A stretch of 64,000 nucleotides of DNA from Trichuris trichiura (taxonomy: Eukaryota > Nematoda > Enoplea > Trichinellida > Trichuridae). Below are positions 5,938 through 64,000 of the stretch, piece by piece (position 1 is the first letter of the stretch; the number at the start of each line of letters is the position of its first letter). The stretch covers positions 62,001 through 126,000 of the forward strand of contig JBAJFE010000052.1 of the NCBI GenBank assembly GCA_037903355.1, given 5' to 3'. Both the position numbers and the translations under genes were made by a program. The notes under the pieces are model-generated. The model did no database searches. It had not been told where the DNA came from and saw nothing but the letters and a program-made list of their open reading frames with translations.

Positions 5938-7124
5938 GCCTCTGCCTGACCAGCAGCGGTCGAGCGGTTGCAACATCGACAGTAGCCTCGCGGGCCCAGC
6001 CTCAGATCACCTGGCTATGATCAGAGCAGCCAATGGAATAGGGTATGTGTAACCAGAGCCGATCGTAAGTCTTATCTCAATGAATACTCTTCACCCGCCT
6101 GCTGTGTTCTTGGTAGAGAGTGTTTTTTTGTTTTTTTTAAATTTTAATTCGAGGCGTATGTGATGGTCTTGATGGGTGTTGAGCTTTGCAGGCCGGCTGA
6201 AAGAATTTTGGCATTTATTTTAGCCTCTATGACAGATGCCGCGAGGCGTTCAAATGGCTTAGCTGTACGAATACCATTGGCATATCCAACAATACTGAAA
6301 GGGTCAATCATGTTGATTATGAGGAGGCTAAGTCTTGGCAACAGTCCTTCAGCCGCATGTTGAGCAATCCAGTGGGAAGGCGTCAGTTTCGTGAATATCT
6401 TGAATCTGAACACGCAGAGGAGAACATTTTCTTTTGGGAACTTATCGAGGAATACCGACAACTGACCAATTCGGATGAGCTTTACGATATGGCTCAGGAA
6501 ATATACAAACGATTTTTAAATACCAATTCAACCAGCGAGATCAATATAGACATAAAATGTCGAAACGCGCTGAATCAGGAGATGAAACGACCAACGAGGA
6601 ACACCTTCGACGAGGCTCAGCGTCAAGTATACAAGCTTATGGAGCGTGACTCGTACACGCGATTCATACGGTCTAACGAGTTCTTCACTTTTCTTGTCAA
6701 TAATTTGAGTCACGAAACGATTGAAAATTGGGGCAAAGATTTTGACGCAATGATGGCCCATGACGAAGGACAGCGATTGTTCCGCGAGTACTTGGTGACT
6801 GAACGGGCGGATGAAAATGTAAAATTTTGGACTCTAGCCAAGCAGTATCGCGAAATAGAAGATCTAAAACAAAGAAGAGCTGTAGCGACGGAAATTTACA
6901 AGACGTTTATATCGCCAGATGCAAAAACTGAAATTAGCATTGATGGTTCCATTCGTGCCGAAATAAGTCAAAATTATGAACAGGCAGACAAGAACCTTTT
7001 CGTTAAGGCTGAAAAGTTTATCTACGAGTTGATGAAGCGCGACTGCTTCCCACGGTTTGTCACTTCCCAGTTCTTCAAGGATGTCCAGGCGAATCACGAG
7101 ATGAACGCTATTTGTTACATATAA
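5938..7124 (+). CDS. rgs-3: Tandem-RGS-domain regulator of G-protein signalling (RGS-3 like)
   Basis: RGS proteins accelerate GTP hydrolysis by heterotrimeric G-alpha subunits at the membrane. Two exons are visible: about 5938-6042 (acceptor TTTTCCATCAG, donor GTATGT) and 6224-7124 (acceptor TTTATTTTAG, stop TAA at 7122). Joining them keeps phase 2. If the in-frame ATG at 6017 is the start, the protein is 308 aa; the frame is open to 5938, so further 5' exons are possible. Domain 1 (about residues 47-165) has the RGS landmarks SWQQSF, FREYLESEHAEENIFFW and FDEAQ...RDSYTRF. Domain 2 (about 178-293) repeats them: FREYLVTERADENVKFW, then KAEKFIYELMKRDCFPRF. Among C. elegans RGS proteins, two RGS domains characterise RGS-3, a chemosensory signalling regulator, so orthology is likely but inferred. 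Both domains keep the acidic/aromatic core, so both may bind G-alpha. Only the 5' end is uncertain. Confidence 0.87.
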
Positions 7125-13772: not shown

Positions 13773-16700
13773 TCAGCCAAGGAAAGGGATGCCGCCAAAA
13801 TCGACTCCTCCTCCAGAGAAGCCACTTACTGGTCCTGCTCCCCAACCCCTTCCTCCACTAACTCCTCTAAGTGGATTGATGCTTGTGCCAGCGGTTTGCC
13901 CAAAAATAGGCATACCACCAAGACCAACTCCAGATGACTGACCGACATTGATTGGACTCATTCCAGGCATTGCCATACCAGCTGTCCCTATGGTAGGTAT
14001 TGCCATTCCGGTTGTTTGCTTTCCTGGTACAACCATTCCAGGAAGCGCTATGTCAGGTGTGGTTGTTCCGTAGGTTCTCATTCGCATAGGACTACCTAAA
14101 TTAAGGGACGGCTGCACTAAGGCTTTAAGAGCTTGTGCCTGCGTCAATAAGTTTTCGCTTGAAAGCGAAGGCACTGTTCCAACTCCGCCAAGACTCGTTG
14201 GATACCTGCTTTCTGTAGGTTCAATAGAAGATAGTCCGATTGGTTTGAAAGGGTGGGCTACCATACCGGCTGGCAGTGCCGGTGGTGGAACTCCTCCAGA
14301 TCTCAATGCGGGCCAGTCTGCTGGCGCTGCCAAACCTGAAGTTTTCACGACATTACTTCTGAAGCCACCAATGCCTACCAGAGGAACTCCCCATCCCCGT
14401 GCCGGTCCATAAATACCTCTCTGCCAGTTAGCATTGACCACTTTACCTTGGTCCCAGAAGTCTGAAACCCCTTTCTGAGTGGTAACTCGGGCGCCCCAAT
14501 CACCATAGCCTACACCTACCCGTCTGCCACCACCAATCGCACCTTGCGGGTTGAATGGATAGAATGGAATACCGCTGACGCCCCAAGCATTGGTGGTAAC
14601 TCCTATGTTGCCATCTACTATTGGGTACGGTTTTTGGTTTAGGCAGTAAATTCGATAGACATTGCAGTATTCTCGCACATGCTGAGGCTCAAAACCGACG
14701 CATATCTTATCAGCTGTAAACCTAAACTTTTCGCACAGCAAAGACGTATCCGTGCCAGGCTGCACGGTTGCATGAGCTTTCAATATCTGAGGAGGTATCG
14801 CTTGGCTAGCTGTTCCGCCGGAGGTTGGTCTGTCGACAGATCTAGTGCACTTAGACGCATAGTTGCGACAAAAGAATATCGCGGATCCTTGGGGCTGTTC
14901 AATGCAATATGTCATATAGGCATTGCTGTTTCTCCTGCAGTAAGAAGATTGTTGTGACTGCTCTTGTGCTATCGAACCTGAATGCCCATCTTGCGGTCCC
15001 TTGCACATCTGTCGGTAGGTTTGGCAAAGTGCTAGCATTTGCCCTTGCTCATTACCATTGCAGTGCTGCTGAGCCAGTTGTTCATAACGCCCACAAAGAT
15101 TAAAAATAGGACTGTTCAATTTTCCACCAGCTGATTGACTTACAGCTTCAGCTACTGTCGACGATGGCTGAGTACCCAGCGAAGCTGTATCAAAGGGACT
15201 TGGTACAACGGAGGGTGGTATTCCGGTCAGACATTTAGCTTTGTAGCTTTGACAAAAGTTTCGTATATTTTTCTTTTCACCGTCGTGAGAATTTTTAAGG
15301 CAGAAGTAAGCAAAATTAGTCCGATACTGTTGACAGTAACTTTCTTGGTTAGTCAAAGATGGGGTAACGACGATATTGGCCTCTTCTTTGTCTACTTGTA
15401 CTGTCTGACGGCACGTTGGCAGATTTCCGTAGCGATGGCACAGCTGTTCTTTGACAGACCCTATAGGTTGCGGGATAAACTTTTTTAAAGTAGGAACTGA
15501 TGAAATCAGGGCATAGGTATTAATAAAAATATTGCTTTCTCTTTATTTAACCCTTCTATAATTTAAACATGCATACGAATATTTCATGTCTGCTTTCGAA
15601 AACGACTGCAGAATACATTGGCTTTCCTCAGCGACCTACGATTATGAGAAATCCTACCTTAACTAGCAGATGGCTGAGTCGTCTTGCTCTCACAAATGTT
15701 AGAAAAGTAGAATGAAGCATGACGGAAATGTTAAAAAATTAGTTTTCAACTATGCTGTTTTCATTAAAATTCGGTGAATATTTTGACTAGTCGATTCAGA
15801 TGGTATTTTTACCGGTTTATATCTGTCGACAAAGTGAATGTCTGATTCTGTCGTAATTATTCGTAGACAGACATCATTATTTAAGGCAAACTGGTGTTCA
15901 CGGAGTTACGAAGGTTAAATTGGCTTATCTTAAATCCTGCGGCATACAGAAACAAATTTTGAAACGTTTACATTCGTAAGAATAAATGGAAAGATTGCTA
16001 CTGACTTTTCGACGATACCGTAAACTTAAAAAGGTTTTGTCAACCCCATCGTCTGTTCCATTAATTTGGATGTCATATGGAACTTACGCCACAACGCACC
16101 AAAGGGTATATTAATAAATTAACTTAAATTGAAAACACAATAAAGCAGCAACGTGAATTAAATTATAGACGTCTCCATGCTCAGACAGCGCAAAAGTAAA
16201 TACCTATATCAATGTTCCAGAAGCTTGCAATGCTATTATTGTATTTCCTTTAAAGATGCAGCAAACGGGACCAACACAGCAGTGTTAGAAATATGAATTA
16301 CTTTTACTTGAACAACGGATGGATGAGCTTACTTCCTTGGACGTTCCAGAAACATATGGACATGCAGACAAGAGCAGTAAGTAATCCACTAATCATTTCT
16401 GTTACTCTGAAATCATGTATACTAGCGGTAAGGTTGATTTGTTATGTGAATGTGGAACACTTTGTGAAATTAGGCATTTAGGAATTCCAGTCTTCAAAAT
16501 TTCGTTTCAAAATGTGACACTCGCTGAGTGGCCGTCGTTATGATATTCAAAAGGCATACTCGTAGGCGACCTTGTTAAACGCTGCGCAAAATTAGCGAGA
16601 AGGTAGTCCTACATGGTTAGGAGCAGTGGCGTGATGCCCAGAAGCATAACTAGTTTCTCACGTTCTTCGATATTCGATGTGGAAGGAATCGGAGCAATGG

Positions 16701-16947
16701 TTTTAAGATATAGCTAATCCTTAAACTGTATGATTTTCAACTGCGTGAGTCAATTCATATGCCAACTTTTTTCAATAAAAATACTGAAAAATTCTGAGAT
16801 TTTTTGGCAACTTACAAACGTCATCGCCTTCTTCTTACGGAATCTCCTATGACGTAGGCACTGAAGTAAGCAGAGGGCAGGAAAAGCAGTCTTAGAGAAA
16901 TAAAGGCAAAAAAGTAACATAAAATAACAATACACTGATATTGCCAT
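13773..16947 (-). CDS. Secreted-type four-cysteine-repeat protein with Gly/Pro-rich tail (paralogue A)
   Basis: I do not recognise the family. Exon 1 (16947-16839) starts at ATG and encodes a signal-peptide-like hydrophobic run (MAISVYCYFMLLFCLYF); its donor is GTAAGA. Exon 2 (15496-13773) has the acceptor ATTTCATCAG and a TGA stop. Together they give 610 aa in consistent phase 1. After a half module (C56, C65) come four full modules at residues 91-125, 171-201, 223-253 and 291-321. Each fits C-x3-[YF]/x10 total-C-x11-C-x6-C, with x15 in the third spacing of the first module. The remaining ~290 residues are rich in Gly, Pro and Met with several Trp (for example GARGWG-like and WGVP motifs) and no Cys after residue 321. 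The tandem neighbour at 17.8-19.4 kb is a paralogue with a matching splice acceptor. A structural or host-facing secreted role is possible, but no function is shown. Exon 1 assignment is by phase and splice fit only. Confidence 0.72.
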
Positions 16948-17790
16948 AACAACCCGACCTTTTACCTTCTAATCCACTTTAGCTGCCCCATCCTTGGCGA
17001 AGTCTGGCCACTTTCTCTTTCTTCTCTTTTTCTTCCTACTGAACGTGGAGACAACGAAAATAAGGATCGCTGTGGTGACCCAGTTCCATTTTTTGAATAG
17101 AAATCCTCTTGATAAAATGAATTCATCTGTTGTATCTTTACATGTACATGCTTTCTTTTGAAGACCTAGTCGCTGTTCAGCAAGAACCTTAGCACGAGCT
17201 TTTATCCGATTTTAAGCATCATCACACAAGTTTCCGCTGTACAGAATTTCCGTGTAATACCCACGTGGTCTGTCATCTCGCATGTAAAGCAAACGATGTT
17301 GAATGGCTATATATAGGGAATCAAAAATTGTATGTCAACTCGCAGCAAGGTGAGTCAGCCAACAAAATCCCTTGATTTTTCAAGAGTCAAATATACTTCC
17401 ATACTGTTCAAACGCATTTCTAAGTGAGCGTTGTTCATACTTGGGCTCAATACGGCTGTGTAGCTCTATGAGGAGCCAAGGGCAAAAGTCAAGAAGTTCT
17501 GGTTTATTGTACTTGATACTCAAAACATTCTGCAAAACAAGCAGAATATTAAAAGATGGAAAATAATTGAATTGCGAAGTGCGTGATAGGGAAATTAAAA
17601 ATCATAATAAACGGTTTTTTGTGATTGGCCACAAGTTTGTGGAATTTCATGCAGCTCCTACCCAATACTCAGCATGAGGTTAGAAAATGGAATATATGGC
17701 CGACAGGGTTTGTCAAATCTGGCAAAGAAAAGTTCAACAGGAGTGCAACGTTCAGCGCTAACTCGTCTTTTCCGTCCAACGAATGTAGTG
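16948..17790. other. Spacer between the two four-cysteine paralogues
   Basis: This stretch holds the presumed promoter of paralogue A and the 3' untranslated region of paralogue B. A minus-strand AATAAA at 17503-17508 lies about 285 nt past paralogue B's stop. I see no other gene. Confidence 0.4.
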
Positions 17791-19371
17791 TTAAACAAGG
17801 CAAAGGGTACGATAAACATTGCAGTATTCGCGTATGAAGTCTGGCTCATAACCAGTGCAGTATCGTTCAGACACGTCCTTAAAATTCATGCACAAAATCG
17901 GAATATCCCATGAACCAGGTGCCCCATATGTCGCCCAAATCGGCTGTTGGCTCGAAGCAGCCATTCTGGCAGCGTTGAAAACACCAGGAAAGCATCTTTC
18001 ACCGTACGCAAGGCAGAAAAACAAAGCATCAGTAGGTGGGCGGCGTAAACAGAATTTTGCAAAGGATATTAAAAACTTTTTACAATAAAGCAAATGATGA
18101 GGAAGTATCCTGGACATTAAAGGCAAAAATCCAGCGGCACCAAATCTGACAGGAGAAATACCACCTATCGTGGCCACAGGAACAAAAGGAGCATGAGCAC
18201 TTGAAGGACAGTTGGCTCGGTATACATCACAAGCTTGCCGTAGTTTTCCTTCTTCCTTTCCAGTGCATAACTCTCCGGCCATCTGTTCATACTGCTTACA
18301 CATTACTTTTCGATCACCCGGCGAAGTTACAGTAATACGTCCAGGAGGAGCAGGGTGCAAATTAGCTTCTGCTGGTACTTCAACAAATCGGTCGGGAAAA
18401 TGAGCACCAGGTACCTTTAACCGATTGCAGTACGTCTTGAACATTTCACACACTTTCCGCAGTTGTTCCTGTTCGTTTCCATTGCATTTGCTCTTCACCA
18501 ATGCAGCGTACTGCGTGCACAAATGAGCCAGATGCCCTGGTGACAACGAACCAAGACCTACACCTTCAGGAGTCACTATTAACAGACGCTCTTCAGAACT
18601 TCCCGCAGCAGTTGGTAAACCGTGGGTTTGAGCATCTTCCTTCCGCTTCGCACTTGCATTGTTTAATGTCATGCTCGCAGAAGTGGCTTGCCCACCAAGC
18701 TCACTTGCCCCAGGGAATTCAGAAAGCAAAACACCACGGTATTTTTCTTTGGGGCTCATTTGCCCATAGCAGAATGCTTTATAAAGGCTACAAAAATTTG
18801 CTGCATGTCCGCGGTCTTCACTAGCGCAGGCGACCTTAATCAAGGGCAAATACTCCTTACAAAGTTGTAAACGCCTTTCAGATGTTAAAGCACGATTGTC
18901 TGGGCCTCCTAAAATTAACGTGGAACGTTGAAAATAATGCTGTAAGTTACTGACCTCTGAGTGCAACATGCTTTGTCCCCGGCTTACAGATCTGACTGTA
19001 AAGTTTGCACAGTTGTTGTAAATTACCTTTTTCTTTTCCGGAGCACATGGTGACTGCCATAGCAGCATACTGATCACATTTTTCGGGAGAAAATGCTATC
19101 TGTTCTGTTAAACCTGACGAATCAGACTGCTGGCCGCCCTGCACTCCGCAGAGTTTACGGAAGGTGTAACAGAACTTATCAATATCATGCCTGTTGCTTC
19201 CTGGATTTTTTCCGATGCAGAAGTACAAAAAGTGCGGCTCATACATTCCACAATAATTTTTCTGCTTGTCATGGCTGCGCTCGGGAAAGGCTTTTGATAT
19301 ATTGTTATTCGCTTCTTGATTCGAACGACATTCTATATTGTACCGTTGACAAAGTTCTGTCCTTGCTGGAA
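17791..19371 (-). CDS. Four-cysteine-repeat protein, seven full modules (paralogue B; 5' end not found)
   Basis: Two exons are clear: 19371-18955 (acceptor TTTCGTTGCAG) and 18908-17791 (stop TAA). A 46-nt intron (GTCAGT...TTTTAG, 18909-18954) separates them in phase 1. The first exon opens with the same half module as paralogue A, then YCGMYEPHFLYFC and so on. Seven full C-x10-C-x11-C-x6-C modules follow, for example LCTQYAALVKSKC...CEMFKTYC. Both paralogues end their last module with REYCNVYR. Here the protein then stops within five residues, whereas paralogue A continues for ~290 residues, so B lacks the Gly/Pro tail. The signal-peptide exon expected upstream of 19371 was not identified. 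Module number (7 versus 4) and tail differ, but the conserved phase-1 acceptor in the same place shows a shared ancestor. Function is unknown. Confidence 0.75.
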
Positions 19372-21813
19372 CTGCAACGAAATTATCCTGACGACGAGTT
19401 GAAGTGAGGTAAGCAACATTTATTGTAATTCTTCGCTCATCCTTCAGGAACAGTTTGTTAGGTTGTCATGCCGCGAAGGGAAAAACTGATCAACCGTTAA
19501 TTATGGGCAGAAACTTAATTTGTACGGTACTGCTGTTAAGTGTTTCCTAGGTCGAATGGGGAAGTGATTACTTCAGCACTTAGTATGCTACGCAGTAAGT
19601 GAGCTGGGGTTTAATGAGCAATGGATTACGAAATTTCCATGATGGAACAGTAGCCTTTAGTTCTTGCCTTATTATAAATTGGTTAGGTTAGGTAATGATG
19701 CTACTTCGCTTTGGGTGACCTACTATACTATTTATGAAATTAGGATGTTTCTTGTGGCCTGTTCTGCATTATGGCCAGAGTATTATTGCATCCTGAGTAG
19801 CTGCACATTCCGTTAGAACAAATTAATCTGGAAGCGATTCAATCAGTTGTTTTTGATTGTCATAACCATCTTTGGCCAGTTAGGTACCTCAAGCACTAAA
19901 TATGATAGAAGGCAGTCGCGCATATACATGTGTTTTCAAAATAATCGAAATGTATAACCCAAGAGTAGCATCATAAAAAGAACGGATATATACGCGTAGC
20001 AAGCGTGCGATGTACCGCGCCGGCACTTGCTTGGCATCGGAACGAGTGTGCGTATCCTCGTTTCACTAGGTCTGAATAAGTCAAGCATTGCCATGAAGTA
20101 TCTTTAAGTCCATTCTGCATGTAAAAATTGTTGAAATTTCTTTTTACTTAAAAGCTTTTGAAAACATAAGACAGTTTTACTTGTCTGGTTACTTTTCAGT
20201 TATTTAAAAACAATGCTAACTTTTGTTTATTTGCGTTTCAATAAAATTTGATTTGAAACCTCTTTACGTGCAGCTAACCGTCGACTGGAAATGTGACGGC
20301 TTTAGATAGTCCGTTTTGTGCAAACACTTCAAGAGTAGGCAAAGCAAAAAAGGAGAGGGTACTTCAAATTTCGACAATGAAATGCCTATTCCTGCTTACC
20401 ATCTCTGCTTAGGCATGGACACCGTGTGGCCAGTATAAAAATCAAAAGCAGCAATATTGAACAGTCAGCCATTCTTCCTTACTCAGTCCGCGGCAAGAGA
20501 GTTACTCTGTAAACGGATAGTTGTTCTTATGCTTCATATGGCAGTAACGTTCTCACAAGTCAGGCTGCAGCGAAGTTAATCATAAACTGGTTTAATATTG
20601 CATGTTCCTTAAGTGAATGACACGCGTCAGAAATTGAAACGTTCTTCGTATAGTTACAGTCTTTTGAATAGACTTGTTTCCGCATTCATAGCTTGCTTTA
20701 ATGAGTGCTTAGGGCATTTTGATTTTGCGAATCCTAATTGATTTGTTATTGTTTACCTTTTTTCCTCGTTATTATTGCAATGCATTGCATTTTGCCTGAC
20801 GTTTGCCGACGGCAAGTTGCCGCGTCGCACTGTTTGTTAACCGTAACTGGAGCACCGAGATAGAACCACTCATAAAACGTCTGCTGGGGGTAATTTACAA
20901 GAAAAACGTTTCATTGATATCGCTTCATTATTGTTAATCTTACTGTGCAATTATTACAAACGTGGACATCTATGAAACGTTTACTGTGGAAGTCTGAGTG
21001 CGTAGATCATTTTGTGAAATCAGCAAAATGTTTACCAGAACTTTTCCCATTTAGCAAGTAGCGGTAGAAAAAGCATGTTTCACCGAACGGAGATTTCTTC
21101 CTTCGTTATTAACAATTCTGTGGTTTAAAGGTTATCCAACCTTGTAACTACCCAAATGAAAGAAAGGCTGCTCTTTAGTTACATCTAACGAAGTGTTCTG
21201 TGATGCCTTTATCGCATTTATACGAGGACTAGGAGGCCAACTCATTTTATTAATATTATCGTGCTTTTCGTTTAGGTAACTCCAGCAGAAGTTTTACTTG
21301 TGCATTTGCCTGTGACAAAAAGCCCACAGATGGAATGCTGTTCACAAAAGTCCCGCAGCAGCAATCACAGGTTGAAGAACTAATTGTATGCGAGAGATTG
21401 GGAGAAGACGGTTAACAGAACAACTTGAAAATCGCCACTGATTCTCAGCGAGTTCATGTAATTGCTTGTGCTTCTTTGCCAATGAAAGATAGTCGTTACC
21501 TCAGCTTTACATGCAGCAACCTTGGCTGGAATGCAGCCACATTGAAAAATGGTTGAGCAATTTCTACTTTCACAAATTATTTCCCTGCTCGATGTTTATG
21601 GCAGAACATGAGTTTCAATCGCAGCTTAAGATTTTTTTTTGAAATATTTACCCGATGCATGCTTCTTAGTTATTAACGGTACTTTGCATGTGTAAGAGCT
21701 GATAAATATCAGTTTTTAATAATTTCTCGTCTTCTGCGTAATGCACCACAGGGCATATGACTTACTCGTTGGCTCACAATGCGGTGCATTACGAGATCAG
21801 TGGAAATACAATC
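19372..21813. other. Region between paralogue B and the calcium-channel gene
   Basis: It should contain paralogue B's first exon and the 3' untranslated region of the minus-strand calcium-channel beta gene. I could not identify a signal-peptide exon that ends in phase 1. Nothing else is recognisable. Confidence 0.4.
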
Positions 21814-45891: not shown

Positions 45892-46369
45892 AGCATCTTA
45901 ATTTTTGGAGCCTCAACACTGAACTGCCTAGTTAACGAACGTTTTCTGCTTACATGAAAATCGATTAGTTTCGACTACTGCCGTATGGAAGCGCACTTTA
46001 AAAATGGCAGCGATTTATAAATAACCACACTGTATGTGCATTGACCTTGACACGTAGTCCCATTGCCGCTCAGGGCTTACTAGGACATTGACAAACGAAC
46101 CAACTGCTGCATTAAGCATTTCTTCATAAGAAGGACATGGCTGACAGGAATGCATTTTCCTTAGGCGAACGAAGCAGGCATGACCGATATTGCCAGCAAT
46201 TCCTTACCTACTTTCCTAAAGCGTAATAGCCAAGAGAACTTCAAGAAATGTTTCCTACCACGCAGGCTGCTAAACCAGTTCCTCGACAGCAGGTCGCGCT
46301 ACTTGCCGCGACCTACTGCGCAAAGAACTACGGCCTTCGGTTCACCGATTATTAGCCGACTTTTCAACC

Positions 46370-46376
46370 TATAAAA
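46370..46376 (+). promoter_or_regulatory. TATA-box-like element of the cuticle collagen
   Basis: TATAAAA lies 90 nt upstream of the collagen ATG at 46466, a suitable distance for a core promoter with a short 5' untranslated region. Not tested by any transcript data. Confidence 0.4.
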
Positions 46377-46465
46377 CCTTATTGCGATCTTTCGGACAGC
46401 CAAAGAGTCGGCAATGGAAAAAGTCGATTTGCCGTACTCCTCCTTTGGAGCAACGAGAAGGAAAA

Positions 46466-48319
46466 ATGAAACAGGTAGGAAAAGTACTAGCGACTTCCAA
46501 TAGGCCTTCTTCATGGATATCATTGCTAGTTGATCCAGCAGTCCTAGCGGCATGGTCCGCAATTCTTGTCAGCGTATGTGTGATAGTGGTTTGCGCAATT
46601 GGGCTTCCAGTCCTCACTGGAACTGTCAACTCCAGGAAATACAGCTTGGACATTGAAATGATGGATGTCAAGGTATTCTCCGGGGACCTTAATAGCATCT
46701 TTCATTTTTATGCGAACAAACTTAACTTTCAGCAGCAAGCCGATAAATTATGGCTTGAGATGATGGCTCTGCACAGCAAGTTACGTAGCAAGCGACATTC
46801 AGGATATGGTTTTAAAAACTTCCTTGCTTAACCTTCATGGCAAGAAGCTTTTTAAGGTAGCCCAACTTTACCTAGTGGTCCAGTACTTCCGTACGCCGGA
46901 GGACAGTTTGGAGCACCGGCCAGGACAGGTTTTTAATTTTTCTGGTGAAAATATGCGAGCGTAGTTGAGGCAACTTTTCAGTGAGTCAAGTTGTATATCC
47001 ACCACCTTCGACCGATCAGCAATACAGTTCAGTAATGCAAGGTTCCTACGGGCAGACGATTGACCAGGGTCAGTTAGGAGCAGAAGATTGCAGTGAGTTG
47101 TTGTTCATGTTTTCGTGTTCTGCTGTTCCGTCTCTTATCTACTTCCTACCTTAGCGTGCCACCGACCAAACCTTTGCCCACCTGGTCCTCCTGGCCCGCC
47201 TGGGCAACCTGGACTTGATGGAAAGGATGGTTTCCCAGGGTACAGGACTAGCTGTTTGCCAGTTGAAAAGATGTGGGCATGGAAAATTAATTTTTAGTGA
47301 ACCTGGACTACCAGGACGCGATGGAAACCTAGTCATGGAAGAAGAGGAATGTCAGATATGCCCTCAAGGGCCACCTGGCCCGCCAGGACCACAAGGTGTT
47401 CGAGGTCCTGATGGTTTCAAAGGCCCACGTGGCCAACCAGGAAAGCCTGGTAATCTAGCATTAATATAGAAGTATTCAAACGCAAAAGCTGGCTGACTCA
47501 TTCTAGGTACACCTGGCTCTGACAATACAGAAGTTGGGTCACCAGGCCCTCCAGGTAAATCGTCTCGCTTACTAAGTCGTAGAAAATAAGCGAACAATTT
47601 TAAGGGCCGCCTGGTCGCGATGGAAATCCTGGTCCTCCGGGCTTACCGGGTGCTAACAGCGAAGGCGGAAAAGGAGAGAAAGGTAGGCACTTGTAGCTAC
47701 TTCGTACAGTAAATACGGTCCAGTGTGATTTGCTGAGTATGACTTAAAGTTTCTTGTGCAAAAAGTTGCCACAGTCTTCGTGACCTAATAGTTTTTTGAT
47801 TGCAAGGACGAACGCATTAATATAATGTTACGAATGTTCAGGCAAGCTTTGCTTCCCTTGAAAAAGTAGTAGGCTGGATGAACAAAGCTAGAAAGCATGC
47901 TATAAAAACAGGTGAATTGACTTTGTTTTTGCAGGACAGCCAGGACCACCTGGATTGCCAGGAGAACCTGGATTACCAGGTACTCCTGGAATGCCATATT
48001 CAGGACCGCCCGTTGCTGGTTACCCTGGAGCTCCTGGTCAACCAGGTGAACCTGGTCCTCAGGGCCCGCCTGGTCCACCAGGTCCAGCAGGTAGTTTGAT
48101 TAATTTCTAAGCCGGATAAGGTTTCATTTCATAAAAAACTTATCATCAGGTCCATTGGGAGAGCCAGGTCGAGATGGTCAGTACTGCCCATGTCCCACTA
48201 GGCGTCCTGCTGAACCACCACCTAGTCCGTATCAGCCTCAACAGCAAAGGCCGGTGATCATGGAAAACTTTGGACCGCCTGTGTTCCCAACTTTGCATCA
48301 TTTTCAACGAATTCTCTAA
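46466..48319 (+). CDS. Cuticle collagen, nine exons, 404 aa
   Basis: A structural protein of the nematode cuticle that trimerises by Gly-X-Y repeats and is cross-linked through cysteines. Exons: 46466-46808, 46857-46928, 46982-47092, 47155-47239, 47298-47449, 47507-47554, 47605-47682, 47935-48090, 48150-48319. They sum to 1215 nt with consistent phases. Seven of the eight introns are phase 1, mostly splitting Gly codons, so internal exons can be lost or gained without breaking the repeat. The N-terminal domain has a membrane anchor at about residues 25-50 and an RSKR processing site at 107-110. Cysteine pairs flank the triplets: [18 protein letters not shown], then [13 protein letters not shown], and a C-terminal YCPCP. 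The first exon is longer before the membrane segment than in collagen 2. An in-frame open stretch upstream of the ATG has no ATG of its own, so 46466 is taken as the start. Which C. elegans collagen it matches cannot be told by eye. Confidence 0.93.
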
Positions 48320-51117: not shown

Positions 51118-51369
51118 CCGTGACTGCAAGTTGTAGCTTCAGCAATCGTTTAAAGTGCACTTCATCAGTTTATAAGTTGGACGTTGTCTTAGTTCCATTA
51201 CCACTATTAATGAATACGTATGCTATCATCTAGTACGGTACTCACTGTTAAAGCTTTATTCTTATTTTCAACAGGCGTGTACTGACTCTTCCGTTTTGCT
51301 TGGACAACTATTCTCAGGATTACTTTTTCTGTAGCACCATTATTTACCAAAACTTATCAACTGTTGGAC

Positions 51370-52377
51370 ATGTCTACTGCTATTGATGAAACTGACCCTG
51401 ACGCCTTTACAAACGTCTATTTGTCCGAATCCGTTGGATTTTCTGCTGATTTTGCTGGCAGTGACCATTACTTTAACAGCGTTCAAGTTTCCTCGTCCAA
51501 GCAAGAAGAAGAAGAAACTGGAATACTAGTTTCTAATTTTGACGTAGAGGATCAAGCAGGTGACAACAGCAGTGACCAAAGTGGAGAAGGTAACATAGTT
51601 GTGCAGCCATCAAAAAAAGCTATCAAACGCTCCGACAAACCTCCCTATTCGTATATTGCCCTAATTGTGATGGCAATTGAAAACGCGCCCAGCAAACGTG
51701 CGACGCTGGCTGAAATCTACCAATTCCTCCAAGAGCGGTTTGAATGTTTTCGAGGATCCTATCAGGGTTGGAAAAATTCAGTGAGGCATAATCTTTCGCT
51801 GAACGACTGCTTCGTCAAATTGCCAAAGGTGGCAGGGAGAGCCGGCAAGGGACACTACTGGACAATAGAACCTTCTGCTGCTTGCCAGTTCTTTTTTGAA
51901 GACGGCTCTGTTCGTCGAAAGCCCAGGCGGTTAAGAAGCATAAAGACAAGTGCGTACGTTGACGGAGTCAACTTCGCTGCGCCTGAAAATCCTGCGCATA
52001 TTAAATATGCTCAACCGAAGTTGGAATGGAATCAAAGTGACTTGTTCAGCCAAACGGCAACATGTGCTCTTGGAATGGACAAGAGTCATTCCACCCCTCT
52101 ATCCTTAGTACCCCCGTGTGCCCCACCAGTGGTTCACTGCGCTGCCAATGGTAACCTGTGGATGGGTCCATGGCTCCATTCACCTGCAGGAAATATGTCC
52201 TCTATGCCTTCAATGCCGTCGCCCGACGAATTCGCCGTGCATCAAGGTGCCTATTATAGTTCGAATTCTTATGACATATCGCAAAATGCGCAACACCTAG
52301 CTCCCCACGTGACCTTTGGCACCAACCAGCTGAGTCAGGTGTTACCCAGATCTGCCTTCGATGCATACAGTGGCTGA
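51370..52377 (+). CDS. let-381: Forkhead transcription factor, FoxF class (LET-381 like), single exon
   Basis: A nuclear DNA-binding factor; FoxF proteins act in visceral and non-muscle mesoderm, and LET-381 does so in C. elegans. The first ATG of the open frame is at 51370 (335 aa). The forkhead domain covers about residues 89-183: [36 protein letters not shown], the recognition helix [33 protein letters not shown], then [15 protein letters not shown]. FoxF assignment rests on [27 protein letters not shown] and the FEDGS-RRKPR tail after wing 2, which parallels FEEGSFRRRPR of FoxF. The segment between TIEP and FEDG carries SAACQFF where FoxF usually has ASEFM, about one extra residue. An acidic, Ser-rich N-terminus and a Ser/Pro/Met-rich C-terminus flank it. 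The absence of introns contrasts with neighbouring genes. An AATAAA follows the stop by 175 nt. Confidence 0.92.
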
Positions 52378-52557: not shown

Positions 52558-55500
52558 AGCAAGGCAACGAGAGACTGACTACTTACTTTTGTTTCTTGCG
52601 CTTCTTCATCATTCTGCCTTTCTAATGAGCCCGGACGTATTAGAGCCGAATGCTTCCGTTCTGAGCTGGGAGATATTCTTTTCCGCCGGCACAAACTGTC
52701 ATCCGTAAAACAGAAGCGACAGTTGCGAAACGAAAAGCCAGAAAAAGTGTTCTCCAAGGCGATTCGTATAAAAGGTATTTTATTATGAGATGGTTTCATG
52801 GCACAGTAACAAAGATTACTGCGTTTTAAGCTTGCTTAGCTTAGGTTGATTGCATGCTTTTAAATGGACAACTGACTTAACTTACAGAATTCATTAATAA
52901 ATATGCGTATTTACGGAATTTTTCCGTTTTTCTCTGGTTTTGTACCAACAAAGAAAACAGGATTCTTCAAAATGGGATGGAGTGTTTTCATCTGTCGATG
53001 GTCCTTATACGCCTATTTCTGTTTTTCTTTGTCGTAGTGAGTATTCGGAATTAAACGGAACAACTGTTCTACTAACGCAATAGTGAACGACTAATAGAGA
53101 AAAAGTGTAGAATGCAATTAAATCTATCCAGAACTTTCGGAACTCTTTAACTCCGCCGTCAGGAAAATGGAAATGGCGGGAAAATCCGTGAAAAGCTAAT
53201 CGATAAATGACCAACAAGGTACGGATAATTCATGTAGCGCAGATTTCGCTTTGCATTGTGGCAGTCAAAGGAAAGACACCCTGATTAGTACGATCAAATT
53301 GGATTGACCATCATGTAAAGTTCATTTTCTCGGCACACGGCTGTCTCCACATACATGCCCGCTCAAATTGATTAACTGAACGTGAAATACCGATGCCTTG
53401 AATTGAGACAGCTGCCTGCCTACTTCTGAAGGCTAATTATTTACAGTTCAACAGTATAAGGTGAGTGAACGTGTGCCTGATCAAATAGCTTACCAATTAA
53501 TTCTAAAGCCTATGGTCCCTAAGAAAATACCCAATTTTGGATGAGGAGTCGGCGCTAAAGAACAAAACGACTTGTAATCGACAAGGGGTTCAAAACGTAA
53601 ACATAGCAAGACGTTTGATGGGAGAAAAAAGCGAAATGATATGCCCAATGAAAGGCACAGTTTACAAGACTCGTCATGAAAAAATGAGGATTATCGCTTC
53701 TACATTATTTACTTTCAATGAATCTCTCTCTTTCTGTATTGACCCAATTCGACCCTGCCAACATTTTCGATACGTATAGTATTCTCATTGTCTGAACGTT
53801 CTGCAGCGCTTAGCCTTGAAAATGAAGCAAAGGGACGCTTGGAAAACTTCTTTAGTTTTGAAGTGATCTTTAGTGCCAAACAAACCGTATTTTCCCTTTA
53901 TTAGATGAGGTTTTGTCCACTCTGCGCCCTATGGTCGTACTGCAAATTTGCCGGCCATACTATTCTGCCTTTATGCAAGCTTAAGCCTCAAACTAAGGCT
54001 TGTATTTTAGCGCAGGCTTACGTAAGAGCAAAATAGGATAGGCAGAATGCTTGACAGTAAGGGCAGAACAGGATGGCCGCATGCTTTCTAGAAAGGAACC
54101 TGCTTTTCTCTGACAGCAGGCTGTATAAATGGCAAGACCCCTTAGCGAACGCTATCGGGTTACGTAACGGTACAGTGTAGATCCGATTAGCATGCCGTAG
54201 GCTCATACGGACTTGTGACAATTAACGGACTAATGTTGCAGCAACAGTGGAGTACAATATTGTGGTACTCTATGAGGAAAGGTCTGTGCCCAGATGGAAT
54301 TGTTTAAGGGGTTTTGTTTAGGAAAACCTAAAATTATATTTTTCATTTTTCTGCCACAAAGAGTCACACCGTCTAGTCTAAGATTAAAAGCGCTTCAAGG
54401 CGAGCAATAAAAGTTACTCTATTTGTTACGTTCAAGATTACGTGATGCTCAGGTTGTCTGTAACCTGCGAGTGATGGAGAAAACTTTGGCAACATACTGA
54501 TGTGTTGTAATGTTTGATAAAGACTCTAACAATGCCCTACGCCTTCCTTCGTAACAGAGAAGAAACTCGCCTAAGATTTCCTCGTAGAAGCTAGGATGAC
54601 CTGTATCGAAATCGTGTACTGTGTAGTTGCATAATGACCCTATCAACAAACCAAGCGGATACAGGTTGTTTGAGCACAGCGTTTGATCGTAGCCTGGATC
54701 CTACTTCAAGTTCCGTTTTGAGAGGGTACCTTCACTTTAAACTTAAGGCAAAATCTAGTCCTAAACGTGGGTAGCAGTCAATGGTTCATGGGCCAACTAC
54801 CCGTCTTCACAGTGTCTGTTTACTCCAGTAAGGGGTCACCACACATGCTGGGGACCGCAACTCTTGCCACAATGCATACTTATCTTAGTCTGCCAGGAGT
54901 ATATTAATGCCATTGTGCCATTCGCATTATCACTTGCCGGAAATGCTCCCATATGAAATTGAGCTGATTGCTTACTTTTCTTTTAACCTGGCGCTGTGTC
55001 CTTCATTAGCAGTGCCCATTTTAGACAGCAGACCAGTTGACCGTAAGCAAAAGTCCTATATGATCTTTCAACTTCCCTAAGATTATTTGCACTCTAAATT
55101 TTACTGAAGCTTTTAAAAGCGCGGCGGCTCGCTGGTGGCAGCTTTTACAACTGTATGTCCACTCTAGCATACTTCCGTACGAAGTAATGAAAAAGATTCC
55201 TCTGTTGGCAGAATTTGTGCGACTACATTACTTCAAAAGGGAGAGCTGCTCCAGCTATGCGACATAATCAAAGACGTACTACACATTGCGCATCAAGATA
55301 GTTTCTTTGAGAAATATATTTGTTCTTACTTGATTTGCACGTACAGTAAGAGGAATACATTACTTTTAGGGTTTTAAAATTGTCCTTGCCATATCTCCCC
55401 ATGAATGACCATCGTCCATCGGAGCGTTTGGCCGGAGTGCCGCCATTGCTTTTTAGTTTCTGAAAAAAATTCAATGAATACGTGCATTTGCAATGAACGA

Positions 55501-57152: not shown

Positions 57153-59358
57153 CTACGTTCTGGCATGGCGCCATTTGGATATTAATGTCTTTGCTGGACT
57201 TGCCAATCCCGGATCTGCTGGCTCGTTTGAATGTTGGTAGCAATGTCGGCATGATCCTGGCAGACCTGTAATTTCAGGTTAATAGATATTACTTAAAACT
57301 GTGGTTACCGGATGGTCCTTGAGGTCCTGGGGGTCCCGGCTCGCCTTCAGGACCAGTTCTTCCTCTTTCGCCTTGTACTCCCCTGGGTCCTGTTGAAGGT
57401 TCGCTTTAACTGACTGATTTTGGTAAACTTACTGGCTCACCTGTTGGCCCCGGTGGGCCCTGATGACCTTCCTTTCCTGGAATTCCTGGTTGCCCTCTTG
57501 GTCCAGCCGGACCCGGCAGACCTGGCGGTCCTAAATTTTAAAGTATCAAATGCCTCAAAACAAAATGGCGTTTAGTTCCACCTGGAGGTGCTGCATTAAT
57601 TACTCTACCAGGTTGACCGGTCTCTCCTTTCAAACCCTTAAAGTGAAGCGATTCACGAAACAGAGATTGAAACAAAACGCCAGTTGAAACTTGCCGGTGC
57701 TCCTGGTGGTCCCCTGAAGTTACAATCACAAGTAAAGTTAAAGTTTTTGTGGAAGGATGGGAAACGTATTTACCTTTCTCCTGGTATTCCATGTGGTCCT
57801 TTCCTTCCTGGTAGACCTGCCTCCCCCTTCAAGCCCTACAATTTGTACGAGTCGAGTAGGGTTAATACGATTACGGTATAGGACGTACAGGCCGTCCGCT
57901 TTTGCCGGGTGGTCCTTTTGGTCCGGGCAATCCAGGGTCACCTAAGTTATGGCTTTTCTGAATACTTATAAAACTTACAAATCAGTGTAATCACCTGGAG
58001 GTCCTTGAGGGCACCGCTGACAGGGTCCTGAAAAGTGGATACAGAAACCTTCTTGCGTAAGGTCGTTTACCTGAACTTTCTTCAGCGCTTAGTAAACGGC
58101 CGTTTTTTCCTGGCTCTCCCGGTGGACCTGGATTGCCTGATTTTCCATCGCATCCATCTTCACCTGGCTTTCCTGGCGAGCCTGGCGGTCCTTGTTGACA
58201 TGTACAGCAAGCCACTTGGCCATAATTTGGCCCCGAAAGCTGGACAGAACTGCCATACCCGCTGTAGTCCGATCTTTTATTGCGGCTGTTAACTAGCTTC
58301 CCTCCAAGTTGCATTGAGTGTTTCCAGTTCTTCTCCGACACTGCCTATTGCAAAACATTTCCAGTTGTTGTAGAAAGAACTACACATTCCGATATTTTGG
58401 TAGGCTTTTCCTCGCAATAATAAGCTTCTGGGTACACGAATAGGGGAGAATAATAAAGTTTTTGCCTATGTTGGATTGAGTAAACTTATTTACTCAGATA
58501 CTTGGCGAGTGGTGGTTAGCCCGACGTATTAGCCTTAAGCCAGCAATAAAACAGCCTTTCACGCGCACATACGATGACTGTTTCATTTAAAGCTTAAAGT
58601 AAGGATGATAAACAACACGACTTGCAGAGGTGTGAATTATGTACCCATAAAGAATTGTTCGTTGCAATCAATGTTAAGTAAAGCAGGGCATTTTAAAATC
58701 GTTTTACTACTTTTATTTGTAAAGGCTCCGGCAATTTTTTGCCTGTTTACACGTTGGCCTGTGTCGCTACATTGCTATAACCACGTTGGAGCTTGTTGAT
58801 TTTGGTGAAACGTTCCAACCGATTCTCAATAAGTTGGGACTCCTATCCTAGTTTCATTTCTTTATTGAAAATTTGTTTACATCGGTGGACTCCAACGTAA
58901 ACGGAACAGTTGCTCGATAATCTTAAGGTTTAAGAGCAAAATTATGAGTTGAAAAATTCACTATCTACCTATTTATTGGTTACTTTTTTCTTCCGTCTAT
59001 TTCTTTTTCGTTTAGTTGAAAGTAAATGAATGGGCTCTTTTAGAGTCCAAACGGAAATGCCAAAATTTATCATCTGCATTCTGAATTTCTTATTCACTTT
59101 CTAATTGCTTCAGAAGAATATAGCGTAACCTAACAGCAGCTGTTGCCCTTTCCGCAATATAGTTTGAAACAAGACCAATCAATATCGTACCTTGCAATAC
59201 CGGACATCGTCGAGCATGGAAGAATACTTTTTCTGAACATTGGCATAAAATACTGGAATGGTAAGCACGCAAACCAAGGTGGTGGCAGTGGTAAGCACAG
59301 TAGCTCCGAATAATATCCATTTAGAGGCAGTCAAGTCATCTATTTCACAATGCTTCAT
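57153..59358 (-). CDS. Cuticle collagen, ten exons, 306 aa, with a 19-nt exon
   Basis: Cuticle structural protein. Exons (minus): 59358-59191, 58344-58071, 58027-57995, 57941-57889, 57835-57774, 57713-57695, 57636-57609, 57530-57441, 57389-57309, 57265-57153. They sum to 921 nt with all phases consistent. Exon 1 starts MKHCEIDDLTASKW, with a membrane anchor at about 14-38, and ends DDVRYCK, matching the YCK-x-W pattern of collagen N-termini. An RNKR processing site is at 77-80. Cysteine clusters are CCTCQQGPPGSPG, CQRCPQGPPG and a C-terminal CRHC. Exon 6 is only 19 nt and its downstream intron begins GC rather than GT (CACCG/GCAAGT), ending TTTAAG; with it, the triplets GPP-GAP-GLK-GET-GQP run without a break. 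Intron 1 (58345-59190) is the only long one. A TATAAAA sits 10 nt before the ATG, too close to serve as a normal core promoter for this start. Confidence 0.92.
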
Positions 59359-60569: not shown

Positions 60570-61319
60570 TTATCGTCCTTGTACAGGCAATTCTTGTAAC
60601 CGGCAGCAGTTGGTGGCCCTGATGATGTTGGTCCAGGTGTCACTGATTGCGATGCCACCGTCCCTGTTAATGTTTAAATTGAATTTTGTATAAAGTGCTT
60701 CCTTCATCTTCCTAATCGTAAAGTGCCTTTCCTTGCACAGCACTTTTGCACGCAATTGACCCGTGCATTGCTCTGCGTGCTGTCCCACCGCTGAACTCTG
60801 GCTGGCTTTCTCCATGGCAACTCGTGGATCCAGTGTGGGCGGACGGCCACGTGACGTGATGGACGGTTCTCCGTTCAAACGGTTGACCGCGTTCCTGTAC
60901 CTCGTTAAAGACCTCATGTGCTCCTGGAACCTGTGTGCCAACGTATAACATGTTTCACCAATGTACGTGGATGAACATCCACACTTGATTTCGTAAAGTA
61001 CCCCAGGGCACTGGTCCGGTGGTACCCTTTCTTTGTCATTCCGTAATATTGAACAGAGGCTTGGGTTCCCTTTGAACCAGACTTGGAAGCCTAGTCTGTT
61101 CCCAAGCCTTTTGACTTTTTCCCCTAGGCCTGCGTTATATGGGAGGATCAGGCGCAGTCCTGGAGCAGGTCTCTTTGTCCTTGTCCTCCCTCCCAGTTTT
61201 CGCTGGATTGTTGAGTTTATTATCTGGGTGCGGTATCCGTTCTTTTCAAAGGTTCTTCGTAGGTGGAACAGCTCCTCTTCCAAATATTCTAGATCGCAGA
61301 TCGCCAAAGCTCGGTCCAC
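60570..61319 (-). CDS. GIY-YIG endonuclease part of the Penelope-like polyprotein
   Basis: An open frame of ~249 codons running to TAA at 60570-60572. It continues the RT region after a one-base shift. The connector begins near DRALAICDLEYLEEELFHLR. The nuclease core has GVLYEIKCGCSSTYIGET (the GIY and YIG positions occupied by VLY and YIG), then HRFQEHMRS with the expected Arg and Glu/His. The tail EALYTKFNLNINRDGGIAIS is typical of Penelope C-termini. This half carries no internal stop. It is out of frame with the RT because of a G6 run near 61322-61327. Confidence 0.85.
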   Translation of the reverse strand: MDRALAICDLEYLEEELFHLRRTFEKNGYRTQIINSTIQRKLGGRTRTKRPAPGLRLILPYNAGLGEKVKRLGNRLGFQVWFKGNPSLCSILRNDKERVPPDQCPGVLYEIKCGCSSTYIGETCYTLAHRFQEHMRSLTRYRNAVNRLNGEPSITSRGRPPTLDPRVAMEKASQSSAVGQHAEQCTGQLRAKVLCKERHFTIRKMKEALYTKFNLNINRDGGIAISDTWTNIIRATNCCRLQELPVQGR

Positions 61320-62478
61320 CGTCCCCCCAATATCCCAGTCATAATGTGTCGCGGATGGTGCGACGTGTACTCAACATATTTGTCTGAGTGCGTCGGTTTT
61401 CGGTAGACGGTAGTTTTTATACCCTCTTGCGAGCGAATGATGACGATATCCAGGAACGGGATTTTTCCTTCAACTTCTTTTTCAATGGTGAATTTTATCG
61501 TGTTAGGGAATTCATGGTTTAATACTTCTAGAAAGACTTCTTCGTTTCCCCTTTTGATTATTGCAAAGATGTCATCCACGTATCGTTTGAAAAACGTGGG
61601 CGCAATTCCACCATCGGTCTTGGAAAACACACGCCGTTGCAAATATCGGCCAACTTCCCATCGGTGTACCGTTTTTTTTTGTTTGTAAAAGGAGCCCTGG
61701 AAGTGGAAGGTGTTCGCCTCAAGCATGCAGAAGGAACACAGCGTGACTATGTGGAACGGGTTGAGTTTAGTGCGTCGAAATAGAGTGTCGTCAGAATTTA
61801 GTAAGTCTAGTAAGACCTCTAAGGTTTCCGGTATCGGCAGGCTTGTGAATAAATCTTTGACATCATAGCCGACCATGATATCTGTCGGTGCGAGGTGTAT
61901 GCTTTTGAGTTCCGTGCAAAAATTCTTGCTGTTTTTAACTGAGGACCGTTGTCGTCTCATTAAAGGTTGGATTACTCGCTTCAAGTACGAACTTAGTTCA
62001 GAAGTGATGCTGTAGATGGACGACACTACCGGTCGGAAAGGAATGTCGGCCTTGTGAATTTTGGGCAAATCATACATTTCGGGGCATTTGTAACGGGAGA
62101 CGTGCCCTAGCTTCTTGCCTATTCTGGTTAGTGTTTCATCTCCAGTTCCTTGCGCAGAAACCTGTATCAGGCATTTCAAAGTCTTGTGTAAATCCTTGGT
62201 GGGGTCTCCTTGAATGGGCAAGTATACCGTGTTCTTTAGGAGGGCGGACATCCTGTTTTGGTAAAACGACTTATCTAACACTACTACCACGTTGCCCTTG
62301 TCAGCTTTTGTGATTACTATGTCTGTTCGTGACTTCAATTGTTTAAGTGTACGAAATTCCGACCTCGTTAAGTTTGCCCTTTCATAGCTGTGCCTCAGTA
62401 TTAACGAGGATATTGCCTGCTTTATGTCTGTCGCCTTCTGGTGCACCTCGTGGACTTGGAAGTATCCCCAGCCCGGTT
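61289..62478 (-). pseudogene. Reverse transcriptase part of the Penelope-like element, frame-damaged
   Basis: RT landmarks in order on the minus strand: DIVITKADKGNVVVVLDK, YDLPKIHKADIPFRPVVSS, VGYDVKDLFTSLPI, LCSFCMLEANTFHFQGSFYK and the catalytic FKRYVDDIFAI. The block GTPMGS, which should follow FYKQK, appears only in another frame after an A-run (plus-strand T-run at 61672-61680). The frame then returns, and residues normally lying between GTPMGS and YVDD are missing. The frame opens inside the right inverted repeat (TAA at about 62479) and lacks an N-terminal ATG, so the 5' end is truncated. A further one-base shift separates it from the endonuclease. Confidence 0.85.
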
Positions 62479-63082: not shown

Positions 63083-64000
63083 TACGAAGGATGTTCTGAA
63101 AGTTTCCGGAAAATCGTTGCAGTGTCTAACAGGACACCAACCAATTGGCCAAAATATATTTAAGCTTATTTCCGTTATCTTCAGGCTTGTACGGAGAGGT
63201 GCCTTATCTGACGCTGCACCAGTGTGGTACAAACTGCTCCTAAAGTAATCGTTTTTCTCATGATATGGAAAATCTTCGTTTTGAGGTCAGAGCTAATATT
63301 AAATTTCTATCCAAGCTTAGTTGGCAACTGAGAAAAGTTATTAAATCTTTGCAGCAGGTTTACGGAAGTAGTGCACCATCTAAATCGGTTGTCTATGAGT
63401 GGATAAGGCGTTTTAAGGAGGACACTGAGGCCATCGAAGGCGACTGGAGAGCGGGACAACCAGCAACTGCAATGAGCGGAGGAACCGTGACTCTTGTCCG
63501 GAACCTAGTAGAAGGTGACTGCAGAATTACTATATGGAGTATTGCTAGGATGGCTGGGATCTCCTTTCATTCAGCATTTGGAATGCTGTATGAAGCGCTC
63601 GGTGTGGAGAAGGTCTCAGTTCGATGGGTCCCGAAAGCGCTGCGTGAAGAACAGCTGGTCCGACGCTTTAACCTTTCTCGGGAGCTTTTAACGAAGATTG
63701 AAGCAAATGAGACCAGGGTTTTTGACCGTATCGTCACGGGAGATGAAACTTAGATCTACCGATATGACCTTGAGAGTAGGATCTAATCCAAGCAGTGGTT
63801 ATCAAAGGGGGTCAGCAGGTCCAGTCAAGTTCAAAGTGGAGCGGTATGCTAGAAAGGTTATGGCGACCATATTCTGGGATTCGGACAGAGTAATTTTGAC
63901 TGACTTCCTCAAAGGAGAGCGAACAGTCACGCCTAGTTATTACAAAGCAATATTGTGAAAATCAAAGCGGGCGTTGGCAAGAATACGGCGTAGCGAGTGG
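63083..64000 (+). mobile_element. Mariner-like DNA transposon, cut by the window edge
   Basis: The left terminal inverted repeat begins TACGAAGGATGTTCTGAAAG next to a TA dinucleotide, as expected for the mariner/Tc1 superfamily. About 180 bp later a transposase frame begins. The right end lies beyond 64000, so the full length and matching terminal repeat cannot be checked here. Confidence 0.85.
63265..64000 (+). pseudogene. Mariner transposase, interrupted by stops and a frameshift
   Basis: Starts MENLRFEVRANIKFLSKLSW. The N-terminal DNA-binding region includes SAPSKSVVYEWIRRFKE. The first catalytic Asp lies in FDRIVTGDET, directly followed by TAG at 63751-63753 where the family has Trp (TGG to TAG). 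A second stop (TAA at 63784) replaces a probable CAA. Beyond it the coding similarity (GPVKFKVERYARKVMATIFW) continues in a different frame to at least 63958. The remaining catalytic residues would lie outside the window. The copy cannot encode an active enzyme. Confidence 0.88.

What the first reader, a model, noticed from the sequence alone, without database searches (positions are those of the whole stretch)
13773..19371. Tandem pair of genes built from an unrecognised four-cysteine module
Seen directly: eleven full modules across two adjacent minus-strand genes keep the spacing C-x10-C-x11-C-x6-C, with an aromatic near the third position after C1 and another three residues after C3. Each gene also starts with a half module behind a splice acceptor in the same phase and place. 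The copies differ in module number (4 versus 7) and in the tail: A has a ~290-residue Gly/Pro/Met-rich extension and B stops. I cannot match this to a named domain. The fixed inter-cysteine lengths suggest a compact two-disulphide fold, possibly two helices. This is my best candidate for an undescribed protein family. Lineage restriction and secretion are inference.
Basis: partly seen in the sequence, partly recalled or inferred. Interest (0 to 1): 0.75.

Follow-up and report, generated by a model that had tools for sequence, protein, structure and literature searches.

The report
Undescribed whipworm secreted cysteine-repeat protein family
Two neighbouring whipworm genes encode probable secreted proteins built like beads on a string from a small four-cysteine helical module that matches no catalogued domain, probably structural proteins of the worm's outer layers; it is a sound but modest find.

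Summary
The module is real. Genes A (16396-13773) and B (20472-17791), both on the minus strand, carry 4 and 7 four-cysteine modules. The stated spacing C-x10-C-x11-C-x6-C holds for 9 of 11; the first module of each gene has x15. Each gene has an upstream signal-peptide-like exon in matching phase; a T. suis protein supports all of B. The window is Trichuris trichiura or a close relative.

No Pfam model reaches its cut-off and no solved structure matches by sequence. The module is predicted as a two-helix hairpin (pLDDT 84.6). A third paralog, C, lies on another contig. Module order looks colinear: A = half-a-b-c-d-tail, B = half-a-b-b-b-b-c-d, C = half-a-b-d-tail (some assignments weak). Trichinella has A-like proteins with all four modules.

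Best reading: a secreted extracellular-matrix-type protein. Restriction to enopleans is unproven: the public T. trichiura entry bears a C. elegans gene name, E04F6.6, untested here.

The parts
16333..16396 (-). gene A exon 1: signal-peptide-like start, ends in phase 1 at GAA|GTAAGC
   Evidence: inferred, the public model P0001 does not reach it
15497..16332 (-). gene A intron (836 bases)
13773..15496 (-). gene A exon 2: half module, four modules, tail, stop
   Evidence: 99% identical to P0001 over its length
15411..15440 (-). A half module C-x8-C
15231..15335 (-). A module 1, type a (x15 loop)
15003..15095 (-). A module 2, type b
14847..14939 (-). A module 3, type c
14643..14735 (-). A module 4, type d
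14361..14642 (-). A conserved Gly/Trp/aromatic block (residues 307-400)
13776..14360 (-). A variable Gly/Pro-rich remainder of the tail
20400..20472 (-). gene B exon 1: signal-peptide-like start, phase 1
   Evidence: T. suis P0004 has the same start
18955..19371 (-). gene B exon 2: half module, modules 1-2
18909..18954 (-). gene B second intron (46 bases)
17791..18908 (-). gene B exon 3: modules 3-7 and stop
19328..19351 (-). B half module C-x6-C
19148..19252 (-). B module 1, type a (x15 loop)
18986..19078 (-). B module 2, type b
18769..18861 (-). B module 3, type b by position (weak score)
18427..18519 (-). B module 4, type b
18208..18300 (-). B module 5, type b
17992..18084 (-). B module 6, type c (moderate score)
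17800..17892 (-). B module 7, type d

Best explanation
A and B are paralogous secreted structural proteins of a small, undescribed family of whipworms and Trichinella. Each module is a compact two-helix hairpin held by two disulphides, probably C1-C4 and C2-C3. The modules are stiff beads on flexible Gly/Pro/Ser/Thr-rich linkers. In A and C the conserved Gly/Trp/aromatic block behind the last bead is probably the part that assembles with itself or binds a partner in an extracellular layer such as cuticle, eggshell or gland lining. B keeps the beads, has more of type b and lacks the block, so it would act as a spacer, cross-linker or soluble partner. Shown: module repeats, conservation, third paralog, and for B a gene model matched by a T. 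suis protein. Predicted: two-helix fold, secretion, exon 1 of A. Inferred: disulphide pairing, matrix role, role of the block.
For: Signal-like first exons in matching phase with similar starts in T. suis and Trichinella. In A against Trichinella P0002, 20 of 20 cysteines align while linkers are 26% identical, modules 45% and tail 72%; in B against T. suis, 32 of 33 cysteines align. Two-helix module model, mean pLDDT 84.6. Linkers are 28-47% Gly/Pro/Ser/Thr against 13-18% in modules, over six proteins. Block shared by A, C and Trichinella. Three loci found in the genome (lower bound), not a large effector-like family.
Against: No expression, localisation or disulphide data. The full-length model of A is poor (mean pLDDT 29.9; the block about 20), so nothing is known of the block's fold. 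No signal-peptide predictor was available. Nothing in the sequence ties the family to a particular matrix; two collagen-type ORFs in the same window are weak neighbourhood evidence. 3 of 6 inter-module linkers of B carry a dibasic pair, which leaves processing open for B.
Confidence: 0.45

Rival explanations
1. Soluble excretory-secretory proteins that act at the host interface, like the abundant p43/PCHTP proteins of the same worms: the hairpin beads would be a protease-resistant scaffold displaying variable linkers to the host.
For: Likely secretion; disulphide-rich repeats; linkers vary much faster than modules between Trichuris and Trichinella (26% against 45%); B lacks the block and is 535 aa of modules and linkers.
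Against: Only three loci were found; the block is strongly conserved between worms of different hosts and tissues; the PCHTP motif and His tail are absent. No secretome data were available.
Confidence: 0.2
2. Precursors cut into single small hairpin peptides (defence peptides or protease inhibitors), as in plant alpha-hairpinin precursors, which have a signal peptide, 5-7 modules with linkers and a C-terminal part.
For: Similar overall layout and predicted hairpin; 3 of 6 inter-module linkers of B hold a dibasic pair.
Against: No dibasic pair in 0 of 3 inter-module linkers of A and of each of two Trichinella proteins, and in 1 of 6 of T. suis B, so a conserved cleavage pattern is missing; the most conserved part is the block, not a single module.
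Confidence: 0.1
3. Ligand-binding carriers, for example of lipid or metal, using the helical beads.
For: Helical cysteine-rich repeats; a Trichinellid poly-cysteine protein (PCHTP) is reported to bind metal (passages).
Against: No sequence or significant structural match to any carrier; a 31-residue hairpin has little room for a cavity (inference).
Confidence: 0.07
4. Chance open frames or a pseudogene pair without a real family.
Against: Module counts far above shuffles, T. suis and Trichinella relatives, cysteines kept, a third paralog.
Confidence: 0.01

Closest known systems
T. trichiura 'protein e04f6.6' (P0001), Trichinella hypothetical proteins (P0002, P0003), T. suis M514_01977 (P0004)
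   Same: Family members: P0001 is 99% identical over 82% of A, P0002 and P0003 44% and 43% over 94% of A, P0004 80% over 100% of B.
   Different: P0001 (485 aa) starts at residue 111 of A, so the public model lacks the signal peptide, half module and module 1. The record names give no function.
Plant alpha-hairpinins and their multi-module precursors
   Same: Two antiparallel helices, four cysteines per module, several modules with linkers behind a signal peptide, variable module number (passages).
   Different: CXXXC in each helix there, CX10C and CX6C here; plants; no sequence relation shown. A resemblance of design only.
Poly-cysteine and histidine-tailed proteins (PCHTP) of Trichinelloidea
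   Same: Secreted cysteine-rich proteins of the same worms, with repeated domains and a signal peptide on exon 1 (passages).
   Different: Their consensus (Cx11Cx15CG ... CKCCC) and His tail are absent from A and B.
Mitochondrial twin-CX9C (CHCH) proteins
   Same: Cysteine-stapled helical hairpins (recalled).
   Different: Other spacing; here secretory-type first exons.

Membership tests
Family of P0001-P0004 (A/B/C family) | Similarity with modules in the same order | tested here: met
   the HMM of the 11 window modules finds 4 of 4 modules in each of P0002 and P0003 and none of 1,889 reversed ORFs at E <= 10
Family of P0001-P0004 (A/B/C family) | Gly/Trp block behind module d | tested here: met
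   met by A, C and Trichinella; not by B, which ends two residues after module 7, nor by its T. suis counterpart
C. elegans E04F6.6 | Sequence similarity to the C. elegans protein | not tested
   only the name of P0001 points to it; its sequence was not obtained; searches returned no C. elegans protein
Any Pfam family (24,736 models) | Score over the curated cut-off | tested here: not met
   A, B; C, P0002, P0004: none over cut-off. 11 modules singly: best E 0.015 (bit scores not shown)
PCHTP | CKCCC-containing consensus and histidine tail | tested here: not met
   consensus read as a passage; absent by reading from A and B
alpha-hairpinin | two CXXXC motifs per module | tested here: not met
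   spacings are x10 and x6; definition from passages
alpha-hairpinin | two helices joined by a turn | tested here: met
   predicted model only
alpha-hairpinin | Cys1-Cys4 and Cys2-Cys3 disulphides | not testable with these tools
   no coordinates or biochemistry; helix positions are compatible
Twin CX9C (CHCH) | twin CX9C | tested here: not met
   spacing
A known fold in the PDB | significant structural match of the module model | tested here: inconclusive

The most novel reading that the evidence does not exclude
The four-cysteine hairpin module and the Gly/Trp block together define a new nematode extracellular-matrix family, conserved beyond Trichinellida, in which the beads set spacing and the block drives assembly; B would be a tail-less version that regulates or caps that assembly.
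Probability: 0.3. Interest if true: 0.5.

Novelty: new variant of a known kind. Interest (0 to 1): 0.35.

Why it matters
It adds a probable secreted cysteine-repeat module absent from Pfam, shows that the public T. trichiura gene model is cut short, and points to an unusually conserved Gly/Trp block of unknown fold. If it is a cuticle or eggshell component it would be a worm-specific barrier protein of a neglected parasite. Without expression or localisation data the importance is modest.

Tried and rejected
Pfam: weak matches only, all taken as chance. Whole proteins: ALS_ss_C 0.25 and CASP_dom 2.8 for B; STb_secrete 1.9 for C, CASP_dom 3.7 and zf-RING_12 6.3 for P0004, none for P0002. Single modules: STb_secrete 0.015, CASP_dom 0.026, DUF2623 0.077, Peptidase_C57 0.22, each in 1 of 11. 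STb_secrete is, from recall, also a disulphide-linked helical hairpin; no relation is claimed.

Solved structures by sequence: best E 3 for B, 0.084 for the module profile, 0.099 for P0002; none accepted. A alone was not searched there.

Structure of A exon 2: mean pLDDT 29.9 from 4 sequences, not used for fold search. Fold searches of the module gave nothing significant.

Module typing is uneven (BLOSUM62 without cysteines). Firm: d-d 74, 75 and 41; a-a 39 for A and B. Fair: most b-b pairs 27-47, but C module 2 with B module 4 only 11. Weak: B module 3 scores 18-24 with the type b modules of A and B, -6 with C module 2, and best (27) with C module 3 of type d; c-c is 32 against 30 for B module 6 with A module 1; C module 1 scores best (20) with A module 2 and is called type a by its x15 loop and position.

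Peptide-precursor reading: weakened. PCHTP: rejected on motif. Genome contigs (prokaryotes): 24 pattern matches, no relative. DB domain, tried as a probe: 10 matches in the genome, none on this contig. The HMM also gave one further window ORF, 52579-52785, at E 0.025, under the inclusion threshold, and four stretches in C where I count three modules (the details were cut off).

Literature (open-licence texts only): 'E04F6.6' 0 papers; 'Trichuris' or 'E04F6' 6,306 papers, 3 listed, none of these with 'E04F6'; homolog locus names 0; the spacing formula 1 paper, on mitochondrial proteins; two six-term searches 0; PCHTP 14 papers, 10 listed; hairpin peptides 18 papers, 8 listed. PMC2954182, PMC8021180, PMC7191063 and PMC5404111 were seen as passages only, the rest as listings with the start of the abstract.

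Full report
Source. The window lies in a 72.7-Mb genome of 62 contigs. Protein A is 99% identical to a Trichuris trichiura entry and protein B 80% identical to a T. suis entry (no T. trichiura entry for B was returned). The source is therefore T. trichiura or a close whipworm. Trichuris and Trichinella both belong to the order Trichinellida, class Enoplea.

Gene models. A: exon 1 16396-16333, intron 16332-15497, exon 2 15496-13773, 595 aa. B: exon 1 20472-20400, exon 2 19371-18955, exon 3 18908-17791, 535 aa. The first exons encode hydrophobic, signal-peptide-like starts and end in phase 1 at GTAAGC donors; I chose them from several in-phase candidates by hydrophobicity and donor, without a dedicated predictor. 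T. suis P0004 agrees with the whole of B, start included. For A, exon 1 is inferred; the Trichinella proteins have a hydrophobic start there. The public T. trichiura model (P0001, 485 aa) begins at residue 111 of A and so lacks the signal, half module and module 1.

The module. A has 4 and B has 7 full modules. Nine of 11 are C-x10-C-x11-C-x6-C; the first of each gene has x15, as have the first modules of P0002, P0003, P0004 and paralog C. Exact x10/x11/x6 matches are 3 in A and 6 in B against shuffle means of 0.0008 and 0.0068 (5,000 shuffles each, maximum 1). An HMM of the 11 modules finds 4 of 4 modules in each Trichinella protein (i-Evalues 1.6e-7 to 1.2e-13), scores C at 1.7e-14 and none of 1,889 reversed ORFs at E <= 10; one other window ORF appears at E 0.025, under the inclusion threshold. 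Hits to A and B are expected by construction.

Family. Searches of the genome with B, A, C and P0002 (E <= 10, counts are lower bounds) match three loci: A, B and a third gene C on contig C42. One further match on contig C2 (E 0.449, one stop inside) is discounted. C has an acceptor in the same phase, a C-x8-C half module, three modules, a short extra Cys-rich insert and the block; its first exon was not settled. Scores without cysteines suggest a colinear order: A half-a-b-c-d-tail, B half-a-b-b-b-b-c-d, C half-a-b-d-tail. Type d is firm, a and b mostly fair, c, B module 3 and C module 1 weak (numbers under Tried and rejected). B thus looks like an A-type gene with type b multiplied and no tail; the module-for-module match with T. 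suis P0004 puts this before the split of the two whipworms.

Conservation. A against P0002: modules 58 of 128 identical (45%), linkers 38 of 145 (26%), tail 166 of 231 (72%), cysteines 20 of 20. B against P0004: modules 88%, linkers 76%, cysteines 32 of 33. A against C: modules 41%, linkers 22%, tail 49%, cysteines 14 of 20, C lacking module c. Residues 268-400 of A, module d plus the block, are 79-80% identical to Trichinella, and residues 273-402 are 55% identical to C. The block, not the module, is the most constrained part.

Function. Linkers hold 28-47% Gly/Pro/Ser/Thr against 13-18% in modules, over six proteins. With likely secretion and the conserved block, the best reading is an extracellular structural protein (confidence 0.45). 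A host-interface protein (0.2), a peptide precursor (0.1) and a ligand carrier (0.07) remain possible. Inter-module linkers with a dibasic pair: A 0 of 3, P0002 0 of 3, P0003 0 of 3, P0001 0 of 2, T. suis P0004 1 of 6, B 3 of 6, so no conserved cleavage pattern, though B is not clean.

Known or new. No Pfam family reaches its cut-off for A, B, C, P0002 or P0004. PCHTP has a different motif. Alpha-hairpinin precursors of plants share the design with other spacing. The searches named under Tried and rejected found no paper on the family; they cover open-licence texts only. The T. trichiura entry carries the name e04f6.6, from memory a C. elegans gene, so a relative outside the enopleans may exist. 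Searches did not return one, but they need shared 5-residue words within a length range, and searches scored only the best 7,998 and 7,994 candidates (104). Lineage restriction stays open.

Noticed in passing
window 17601-17380 and 17211-16969 (-): Small ORFs between B and A. The first has no match elsewhere in the genome and no Pfam match; the second has a weak FAM209 match (E 0.028, under cut-off). Possibly a small unannotated gene.
   Followed up: partly
window 6201-7121 (+): ORF with two RGS domain matches (PF00615, 204.8 bits).
   Followed up: partly
window 51286-52374 (+): Forkhead transcription factor ORF (PF00250, 117.1 bits).
   Followed up: partly
window 46274-46828 (+) and 57994-58344 (-): Cuticle-collagen N-terminal match just over cut-off (24.1 against 23.5 bits) and a collagen triple-helix ORF (30.8 bits).
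   Followed up: partly
window 61292-62476 (-) and 63244-63753 (+): By eye a reverse-transcriptase-like ORF (no Pfam match) and a mariner-like transposase fragment (not scanned).
   Followed up: no
L024:2651-3778 (+), G000 contig C42: Paralog C has a short insert with six cysteines spaced by 2 and 4 residues between its first and second module, not seen in A or B.
   Followed up: partly
window 52579-52785 (+): An ORF weakly matched by the module HMM (E 0.025, under the inclusion threshold); taken as chance.
   Followed up: no
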